A stretch of DNA of 64,000 bases from Nitrospinota bacterium. Lineage in GTDB: Bacteria > Nitrospinota_A > UBA7883 > JACRLM01. The notes under the pieces were generated by a model that was not told the origin of the DNA, ran no database searches, and was given only the letters and a program-made list of their open reading frames with translations. Of the stretch, positions 30,163 to 31,641 are shown piece after piece. The translations under genes were made by a program, and so were the position numbers. The DNA lies in the NCBI GenBank assembly GCA_016208975.1, contig JACQXA010000004.1, positions 248,001 through 312,000 on the forward strand, read 5' to 3'. Positions within the stretch are counted from its first letter, which is position 1; every line of letters begins with the position of its first letter.

Positions 30163-31641
30163 ATGAATATGGACAGAAAAAATAAATTTGACAGCCTGCT
30201 TATTGATTTATTCAAGATTAAAAATAAAACTCAGTTAGGTAAAACTTTTGAGAATCTTTGCGAATATTATCTCAAAGGTCGTTTTCAATACTTATGGGGT
30301 AGTTCAAGCAAACCCCCTAATTCAATCCCCATCACAATTCCTGATAATATCGACATTACCCGAGGAGATACGGGTGTAGATTATTACGCTTGTGGTGAAA
30401 ATGGAGAGGTATGGGCCATTCAGGTAAAAGCACGTAAAAACAAACTGGTCAAGGGCGATTTGAATTCATTTATTGCAGACACTACAATACGGAAAATAAA
30501 TAAGTTAATGGTAGTCACGACTTCAAACGGTCTTTCAAGTAATGCTACCAAATATGTTGCCGAACGCCAAATCACGATGGTGTTCGGGAACGACCTCAGG
30601 GATTCAAACACCAACTGGCCAGAGTCGCTACGCATCGACCCCATTATTGCCCCACAACGCAAACCTCAAAAGGGCAGTAAGTGGTTGCCATTCGCGGTGG
30701 CAAGACAATATGCGCAGGCCCTTCGCCTACGAAACCATAGAGCTTGGCTGACATTCGTAAGGTCAGGGCACAAACGAGAGGATGTCCCTGCAAATCCCCA
30801 AGAAACATACGGAAAAAAGAAGGAGTGGACTTCGTGGGGCGATTTCCTGGGGACAGGAAATATACGAAGTGGAAAATGGCTTTGTTATGAGGATGCCAGA
30901 CAGACAGTTCTGAAGCTTGGACTGAAAAATGATCGCGATTGGAGAGAATGGAGCAAGTCAGGAAAAAGACCAAAAAATATACCTGCAAACCCTGATCAGA
31001 TCTATGCTCACAAGGGCTGGTGTAGCTGGCCCCATTGGCTTCGAAATGCGGAAAACAAGAGTTTTGTTGACTTCGAAGCGGCTAGAGAGTTCGCCAGGTC
31101 TTCTGACATTAACAAAGCAGCCGAGTGGAATAAAATAGCCAAATCCGGAAGTCTTCCGGCAAATATACCCCGTAGCCCTCGGACAGTGTACCTACATAAA
31201 GGATGGAAGGGATGGGGGGACTTTCTTGGCTCAGGCGCAACGAGCCCAGCTCAACCGAAAAATTTCGTCTGTTATGAAGAAGCAAGTCAATTTGCACAGT
31301 CTCATAAGGTCAAGTCAGCATCAAAATGGCGGATTTTATGCCAATCGGGTGATAGACCTACAAATATCCCCGCCAATCCATCAAAGGTCTATAAAAATGA
31401 CTGGACTAATTGGGGAAAATTCTTGGGGAAAGATCCCACAAGGCGTGATTTGAAATTGAAGTGGTTGCCATTTAATGAAGCACGGAAAAAAGTATGGGAA
31501 ATGGGCATGATGAGCAGGGAGCAATGGAGGAGAGAACGTCATAATTTACCAGAAGGAATCCCTCGTAGTCCTGAAGATGCGTATAACAACCAAGGATGGA
31601 AGGGATGGGGGGACTGGCTTGGGTTTCGAAGGCCAAAATAA
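30163..31641 (+). CDS. Mrr-like PD-(D/E)XK nuclease fused to integrase-type repeats
   Basis: A 492-residue protein with two parts. Residues 1-165 have the PD-(D/E)XK nuclease pattern: an early Glu (TFENL, Glu30), the DTGVDYYA segment (Asp73) and QVKAR (Gln87, Lys89). Residues 172-490 contain five copies of a 58-60 residue repeat with the pattern W/F-x3-AR...W...SG..P.NIP.NP..Y...W..WGDFLG. Such repeats occur in phage integrase-like and eukaryotic repeat proteins. I do not know this fusion as a named system. The gene is AT-rich and its codon use differs from the neighbours, suggesting horizontal transfer. AAGG five bases before the ATG sets the start. Confidence 0.75.
   Translation: MNMDRKNKFDSLLIDLFKIKNKTQLGKTFENLCEYYLKGRFQYLWGSSSKPPNSIPITIPDNIDITRGDTGVDYYACGENGEVWAIQVKARKNKLVKGDLNSFIADTTIRKINKLMVVTTSNGLSSNATKYVAERQITMVFGNDLRDSNTNWPESLRIDPIIAPQRKPQKGSKWLPFAVARQYAQALRLRNHRAWLTFVRSGHKREDVPANPQETYGKKKEWTSWGDFLGTGNIRSGKWLCYEDARQTVLKLGLKNDRDWREWSKSGKRPKNIPANPDQIYAHKGWCSWPHWLRNAENKSFVDFEAAREFARSSDINKAAEWNKIAKSGSLPANIPRSPRTVYLHKGWKGWGDFLGSGATSPAQPKNFVCYEEASQFAQSHKVKSASKWRILCQSGDRPTNIPANPSKVYKNDWTNWGKFLGKDPTRRDLKLKWLPFNEARKKVWEMGMMSREQWRRERHNLPEGIPRSPEDAYNNQGWKGWGDWLGFRRPK

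What the first reader, a model, noticed from the sequence alone, without database searches (positions are those of the whole stretch)
30163..31641. Nuclease fused to five integrase-type repeats in an AT-rich island
The N-terminus has Glu30, Asp73 and QVK (87-89) of an Mrr-like PD-(D/E)XK nuclease. The rest is five repeats of about 60 residues ending in WGDFLG. No helicase or methyltransferase is nearby, unlike usual type I or ISP systems. The AT-rich composition points to transfer. It may be a compact defence effector whose repeats bind DNA.
Basis: partly seen in the sequence, partly recalled or inferred. Interest (0 to 1): 0.7.

Follow-up and report, generated by a model that had tools for sequence, protein, structure and literature searches.

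The report
Nuclease fused to DNA-reading repeats
A bacterium of the phylum Nitrospinota carries a single, probably imported gene that joins a DNA-cutting domain to five repeats whose variable positions look like a DNA-reading surface; it may be a natural site-directed nuclease, but neither its target nor its role has been tested.

Summary
Window 30163-31641 (+) encodes 492 aa: an Mrr-type PD-(D/E)XK nuclease (Pfam Mrr_cat_2; closest solved relative is the type ISP enzyme LlaBIII, with E30, D73, Q87 and K89 all matched) followed by exactly five INT_rpt (PF14882) repeats. The gene is AT-rich (44% GC against about 58%) and sits alone among housekeeping genes. One full-architecture relative was found, in another Nitrospinota genome at an unrelated site, also AT-rich, with six repeats. 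Neither has a helicase, DNA methyltransferase or defence island beside it.

New here: in viral contigs the same repeats are fused to other nucleases (GIY-YIG; Mrr plus SF2 helicase) and to helicase-methyltransferases, which suggests a general DNA-targeting module. Within near-identical arrays, amino-acid changes concentrate at the same columns (20, 21, 24, 39, 41, 42), at the starts of helices 2 and 3, and this holds in held-out arrays. That resembles the specificity positions of modular DNA readers. The repeat fold was predicted with good confidence and has no PDB match.

Best reading: a stand-alone sequence-directed endonuclease. Restriction of foreign DNA is somewhat favoured over a selfish, homing-type role; neither is shown.

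The parts
30163..31641 (+). Mrr-type nuclease-INT_rpt protein, 492 aa
   Evidence: ORF; full-length homologue 42% identical in a Nitrospinales MAG
30178..30678 (+). PD-(D/E)XK (Mrr/type ISP-like) nuclease domain, aa ~6-172; E30, D73, Q87, K89 conserved
   Evidence: Pfam, LlaBIII 4xqk alignment, invariant in the homologue and in all six Mrr-helicase-INT_rpt proteins
30679..30852 (+). INT_rpt repeat 1 (aa 173-230)
   Evidence: repeat HMM i-E 3e-22
30874..31044 (+). INT_rpt repeat 2 (aa 238-294)
   Evidence: repeat HMM i-E 4e-26
31060..31230 (+). INT_rpt repeat 3 (aa 300-356)
   Evidence: repeat HMM i-E 9e-24
31261..31428 (+). INT_rpt repeat 4 (aa 367-422)
   Evidence: repeat HMM i-E 6e-24
31459..31623 (+). 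INT_rpt repeat 5 (aa 433-487)
   Evidence: repeat HMM i-E 9e-21

Best explanation
The gene makes a stand-alone, ATP-independent, site-directed DNA endonuclease. The C-terminal array of five four-helix INT_rpt repeats docks on DNA and reads sequence, mainly through residues at the starts of helices 2 and 3 of each repeat (columns 20, 21, 24 and 39, 41, 42). The N-terminal Mrr-type PD-(D/E)XK domain then nicks or cuts near the bound site, probably as two molecules for a double-strand break. It arrived by horizontal transfer as a single gene. Its most likely role is restriction of incoming mobile DNA carrying the target, with the host chromosome spared because the site is absent or differently modified. 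Shown by computation: domain identity, intact catalytic residues, five repeats, foreign composition, solitary setting, repeated fusion of the repeats to nucleases and helicases, position-specific hypervariability. Inferred: DNA binding, sequence reading, cleavage, the anti-mobile-DNA role.
For: Nuclease. Repeat array. DNA-targeting role of the repeats: the same arrays are fused to GIY-YIG (11 proteins), Mrr plus SF2 helicase (5 viral, 1 genomic), SNF2/SF2 helicase with methyltransferase, and one HNH hit, and the repeats occur in gamma-mobile-trio proteins beside a recombinase. Hypervariable columns: within-array difference 0.77 at the six columns against 0.37 at other variable columns; held-out test 0.73 against 0.43, p<0.05 in 97% of 200 splits; pN/pS 1.04 against 0.38 with similar pS. 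The columns map to the starts of helices 2 and 3 of the model (pLDDT 82.7). The repeat region is basic: 60 K+R against 32 D+E. Acquisition. A helicase-bearing relative matches R-M models; another has an integrase beside it.
Against: No direct evidence of DNA binding or cleavage. No defence gene neighbourhood for either stand-alone homologue. Only two stand-alone members found. pN/pS near 1 also fits relaxed constraint. In LlaBIII the nuclease acts with a translocating motor, which is missing here, so the domain may need activation this protein cannot supply. How the host chromosome avoids cutting is unexplained.
Confidence: 0.5

Rival explanations
1. A free-standing selfish (homing-type) endonuclease: the repeats recognise one long site in DNA lacking the gene, the nuclease cuts there, and repair copies the gene in. 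The repeats serve mobility, not defence.
For: INT_rpt arrays in viral contigs are often joined to GIY-YIG domains typical of mobile endonucleases, and one to HNH. The gene is a solitary insertion with foreign composition in both hosts. Arrays would read long, variable sites if the hypervariable columns are specificity positions.
Against: The two homologues lie at unrelated places (oprB/thiL side against HIT-nucleotidyltransferase/mutS), whereas homing keeps one site. No intron or intein was recognised around the gene. The nuclease type is shared with R-M enzymes.
Confidence: 0.25
2. A degraded remnant or partner of a larger Mrr-helicase-INT_rpt restriction enzyme that has lost its motor and is inactive or works only with a host helicase in trans.
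For: Six proteins with the order Mrr - SF2 helicase - INT_rpt exist, so deletion of the helicase would give exactly this layout.
Against: The frame is intact, all catalytic residues are kept, five complete repeats remain, and an independent 42% identical homologue has the same layout with six intact repeats. The nuclease is no closer to the helicase-bearing group than to other Mrr/ISP nucleases.
Confidence: 0.15
3. The repeats are a protein-protein or oligomerisation module, and the hypervariable columns only reflect relaxed surface positions.
For: pN/pS at the six columns is about 1, not clearly above it. No solved relative of the repeat exists.
Against: Other columns that vary as much between proteins (10, 14, 27, 34, 46) vary much less within arrays. 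The identified fusion partners act on DNA, and the array is basic.
Confidence: 0.1

Closest known systems
Type ISP restriction-modification enzymes (LlaBIII, LlaGI; PDB 4xqk)
   Same: N-terminal Mrr-family nuclease with the same catalytic residues; E 6e-12 to LlaBIII residues 12-175
   Different: No SF2 helicase, coupler, methyltransferase or TRD; repeats follow directly
Mrr - SF2 helicase - INT_rpt proteins of viral contigs (L019, L096, L123, L126, L132) and genome G441
   Same: Same class of nuclease at the N-terminus and the same repeat family at the C-terminus
   Different: They carry a ResIII/Helicase_C motor between the two; the window protein has none
GIY-YIG - INT_rpt proteins (e.g. 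L021) and other INT_rpt nucleases of viral contigs
   Same: Nuclease domain joined directly to INT_rpt repeats, no motor
   Different: Unrelated nuclease fold
Mrr-type (type IV) restriction enzymes
   Same: Mrr_cat domain (PF04471 E 2.5e-8), no methyltransferase
   Different: Repeat array instead of an N-terminal winged helix (the latter from general knowledge)
TALE and other modular DNA-binding repeats (by analogy only)
   Same: Tandem repeats with a constant scaffold and a few hypervariable columns
   Different: About 57-residue core plus linker (62-67 per unit), four helices, no sequence or fold match found; no code known

Membership tests
PF13156 Mrr_cat_2 / PD-(D/E)XK nuclease | Profile match above the curated cut-off | tested here: met
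   48.9 bits against cut-off 22
PF13156 Mrr_cat_2 / PD-(D/E)XK nuclease | Catalytic residues E, D and QxK present | tested here: met
   E30, D73, Q87, K89 aligned to LlaBIII and invariant in relatives
PF14882 INT_rpt | Profile match above the curated cut-off | tested here: met
   27.9 bits against 26.5; five units by a dedicated HMM
Type ISP R-M enzyme | Helicase-like ATPase, methyltransferase and TRD in the same chain | tested here: not met
   Only nuclease and INT_rpt in 492 aa
Type IV (Mrr-like) restriction enzyme | Cuts modified DNA | not testable with these tools
   Needs biochemistry
Type IV (Mrr-like) restriction enzyme | No cognate methyltransferase beside it | tested here: met
   Window genes scanned; none recognised
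Homing endonuclease | Occupies a fixed target site, absent in empty alleles | tested here: inconclusive
   Two homologues at different sites; relatives of the order lack the gene but are too distant to show an exact empty site
Known defence system (PADLOC) | Full-length match or defence-island setting | tested here: not met
   Only the nuclease part matches R-M models; neighbours are housekeeping genes
Modular sequence-reading DNA-binding repeat (TALE-like logic) | Hypervariable columns within otherwise constant repeats | tested here: met
Modular sequence-reading DNA-binding repeat (TALE-like logic) | Residue-to-base correspondence | not testable with these tools
   No binding data exist

The most novel reading that the evidence does not exclude
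INT_rpt arrays are an unrecognised class of modular, sequence-reading DNA-binding repeats, with specificity set by residues at the starts of helices 2 and 3 (columns 20/21/24 and 39/41/42), used by viruses and bacteria to aim nucleases, helicases and recombinases. The window protein is a natural two-part analogue of a TALE nuclease.
Probability: 0.3. Interest if true: 0.9.

Novelty: new variant of a known kind. Interest (0 to 1): 0.62.

Why it matters
INT_rpt is a catalogued Pfam repeat with no solved structure found here and no functional study in the papers searched. The fusion survey and the conserved hypervariable columns give a concrete, testable hypothesis: a new modular DNA-recognition repeat. 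If it holds, it would explain many unannotated viral and plasmid proteins and offer a natural nuclease built on the same principle as engineered site-directed nucleases.

Tried and rejected
AlphaFold on the full protein without an alignment: useless (pLDDT 35). First genome-contig scan found nothing, the second only the Nitrospinales homologue. P0001 as a single query in viral contigs: nothing. Searches of two small phyla gave nuclease-only matches, mostly in large ORFs. PADLOC hits in the window look like generic ATPases and similar, judged from the family names only, because the call lists no members. Flank search for target duplications or inverted repeats: none convincing. No paper on INT_rpt function among those held; one modelling paper lists the family without function. 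'Type ISP enzyme' rejected as a label because motor, methyltransferase and TRD are absent. 'Integrase' rejected: no recombinase domain. The HNH domain of the LR745208 protein was read by eye; Pfam did not report it. The own-genome search with the Pfam INT_rpt model rang nowhere, not even at this gene, so it cannot exclude further INT_rpt genes in the host.

Full report
1. Observation. The ORF at 30163-31641 (+) encodes 492 aa. Its N-terminus matches Mrr_cat_2 (E 7e-13) and Mrr_cat (2.5e-8), and its C-terminus INT_rpt, PF14882 (2.8e-6, just above cut-off). Against sequences of solved structures, aa 1-173 match the nuclease of the type ISP enzyme LlaBIII (4xqk, E 6e-12); E30, D73, Q87 and K89 fall on LlaBIII E38, D78, Q92 and K94. 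The paper on the close homologue LlaGI uses a D78A mutant alongside a nuclease-deleted one (PMC4872093), in line with D78 being catalytic. A repeat HMM built iteratively finds five repeats at aa 173-230, 238-294, 300-356, 367-422 and 433-487, with independent E from 1e-20 to 1e-26.

2. Setting. The gene lies after lon and oprB and before a small gene, thiL and smc. It is 44.4% GC (GC3 42%) against 57.6-58.6% for lon, oprB and smc. The AT-rich stretch is therefore essentially one gene, not an island. The window's other genes look like housekeeping genes, and PADLOC matches among them are generic ATPases and the like, as far as the family names tell. The thiL-smc order is kept in the four relatives of the order whose fetched contigs reach both genes, and the relatives lack this gene; they are too distant (42-49% identity in ThiL) to reveal an exact insertion point. 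The genome has no second Mrr_cat_2 gene.

3. The one full relative. G013, the Nitrospinales MAG behind JAHFEJ010000043, has a 547 aa protein, 42% identical, with six repeats. It lies between a nucleotidyltransferase gene that follows ybeZ/ybeY/HIT-type genes, and mutS (gene names read from the translations, the nucleotidyltransferase confirmed), and is also AT-rich (41% against 55%). The gene thus sits in two unrelated loci. Two of 24 genomes of the window's phylum carry it, and none of about 360 other sampled genomes does; in that sample one genome, G441, has the longer nuclease-helicase-repeat form.

4. What the repeats do elsewhere. A repeat-pair query recovered 75 viral-contig loci, and with earlier loci gave 73 distinct repeat-bearing ORFs. 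Of 48 proteins with additional sequence, 13 match Helicase_C, 12 ResIII, 11 GIY-YIG, 5 Mrr_cat_2, 5 Methyltransf_8, 4 SNF2 and 1 HNH; related copies are included, so these are counts of proteins and not of independent fusions. Five viral proteins and G441 have the order Mrr nuclease - SF2 helicase - INT_rpt. L019 matches PADLOC R-M models over nuclease and helicase, and L096 has an integrase gene just downstream. On plasmids, repeat proteins lie beside a Tus-like gene or form part of gamma-mobile-trio elements. The identified partners act on DNA, which makes a DNA-targeting role for the repeats the simplest explanation.

5. Structure. With 50 aligned rows, AlphaFold gives the window array a mean pLDDT of 82.7 and low pTM (0.33), i.e. 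well-formed repeats in uncertain mutual arrangement. Each repeat has four helices. Foldseek finds no PDB match (best E 1.5). In the viral library it finds one unnamed protein (1.2e-6) and giant-virus SF2 helicases (1.8e-4, 1.8e-3). A profile search of PDB sequences found nothing (best E 0.45).

6. Hypervariable columns. Over 323 repeats (57 columns), near-identical repeats of one array differ chiefly at columns 20, 21, 24, 39, 41 and 42, then 50, 43, 52 and 19. Mean within-array difference is 0.77 at the six and 0.37 at the other columns that vary as much between proteins. Because the six were picked from the data, I split the arrays by locus 200 times: columns chosen in one half vary at 0.73 in the other half against 0.43 for the rest, p<0.05 in 97% of splits, and the same six columns are chosen most often. 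The p values are permutation values over columns within a split, and the splits overlap, so they are not independent tests. At codon level pN/pS is 1.04 at the six and 0.38 elsewhere with similar pS; this is compatible with diversifying selection or with relaxed constraint, and pS is partly saturated. In the model, columns 20/21/24 open helix 2 and 39/41/42 open helix 3. Between the window protein and its homologue, corresponding repeats R1, R2, R3 and the last share 47-59% of scaffold residues but 17, 50, 0 and 17% of the six columns, suggesting different targets; the numbers are small.

7. Interpretation. A constant scaffold with a few hypervariable positions, basic charge and fusion to nucleases is what a modular DNA reader looks like. 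Together with an intact PD-(D/E)XK site it makes a stand-alone site-directed endonuclease the best reading (0.5). Role: restriction of invading DNA is slightly favoured over homing, from the R-M kinship of the nuclease and the R-M-like helicase-bearing relatives; defence-island evidence is absent. The missing motor is the main mechanistic worry, since type ISP nucleases act after translocation (PMC4666363).

8. Novelty. Both domains are known families. The motor-less combination and the hypervariability of INT_rpt were not found described in the papers searched, a library that lacks most subscription journals. I rate it a new variant of a known kind, with a stronger unproven case that INT_rpt is a new class of DNA-reading repeat.

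Noticed in passing
L011:3997-5603, L012:3991-5906: On Photobacterium and Shewanella plasmids with MOBH relaxases an INT_rpt-only protein is encoded directly after a Tus-like DNA replication terminus-binding protein.
   Followed up: partly
L069:806-7740: A 308 kb viral contig carries six consecutive INT_rpt genes (3-8 repeats each), suggesting local gene and repeat amplification.
   Followed up: no
L009:3254-5032: Megaphage record LR745208 has a 592 aa protein with an HNH-like motif (by eye) followed by five INT_rpt repeats.
   Followed up: partly
L018:5809-9702, L072:2780-7006: Large viral contigs encode INT_rpt arrays followed by about 850-880 residues (in L018 an SNF2/SF2 helicase and a methyltransferase) in one chain.
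   Followed up: partly
L045:916-4005: Repeats 2 and 3 of the G441 protein are identical over almost their whole length, a recent repeat duplication.
   Followed up: no
window repeat array, model: The predicted INT_rpt fold matches giant-virus SF2 helicases in the viral structure library; which part of those proteins matches was not seen. Kinship with helicase-associated repeats is possible.
   Followed up: no
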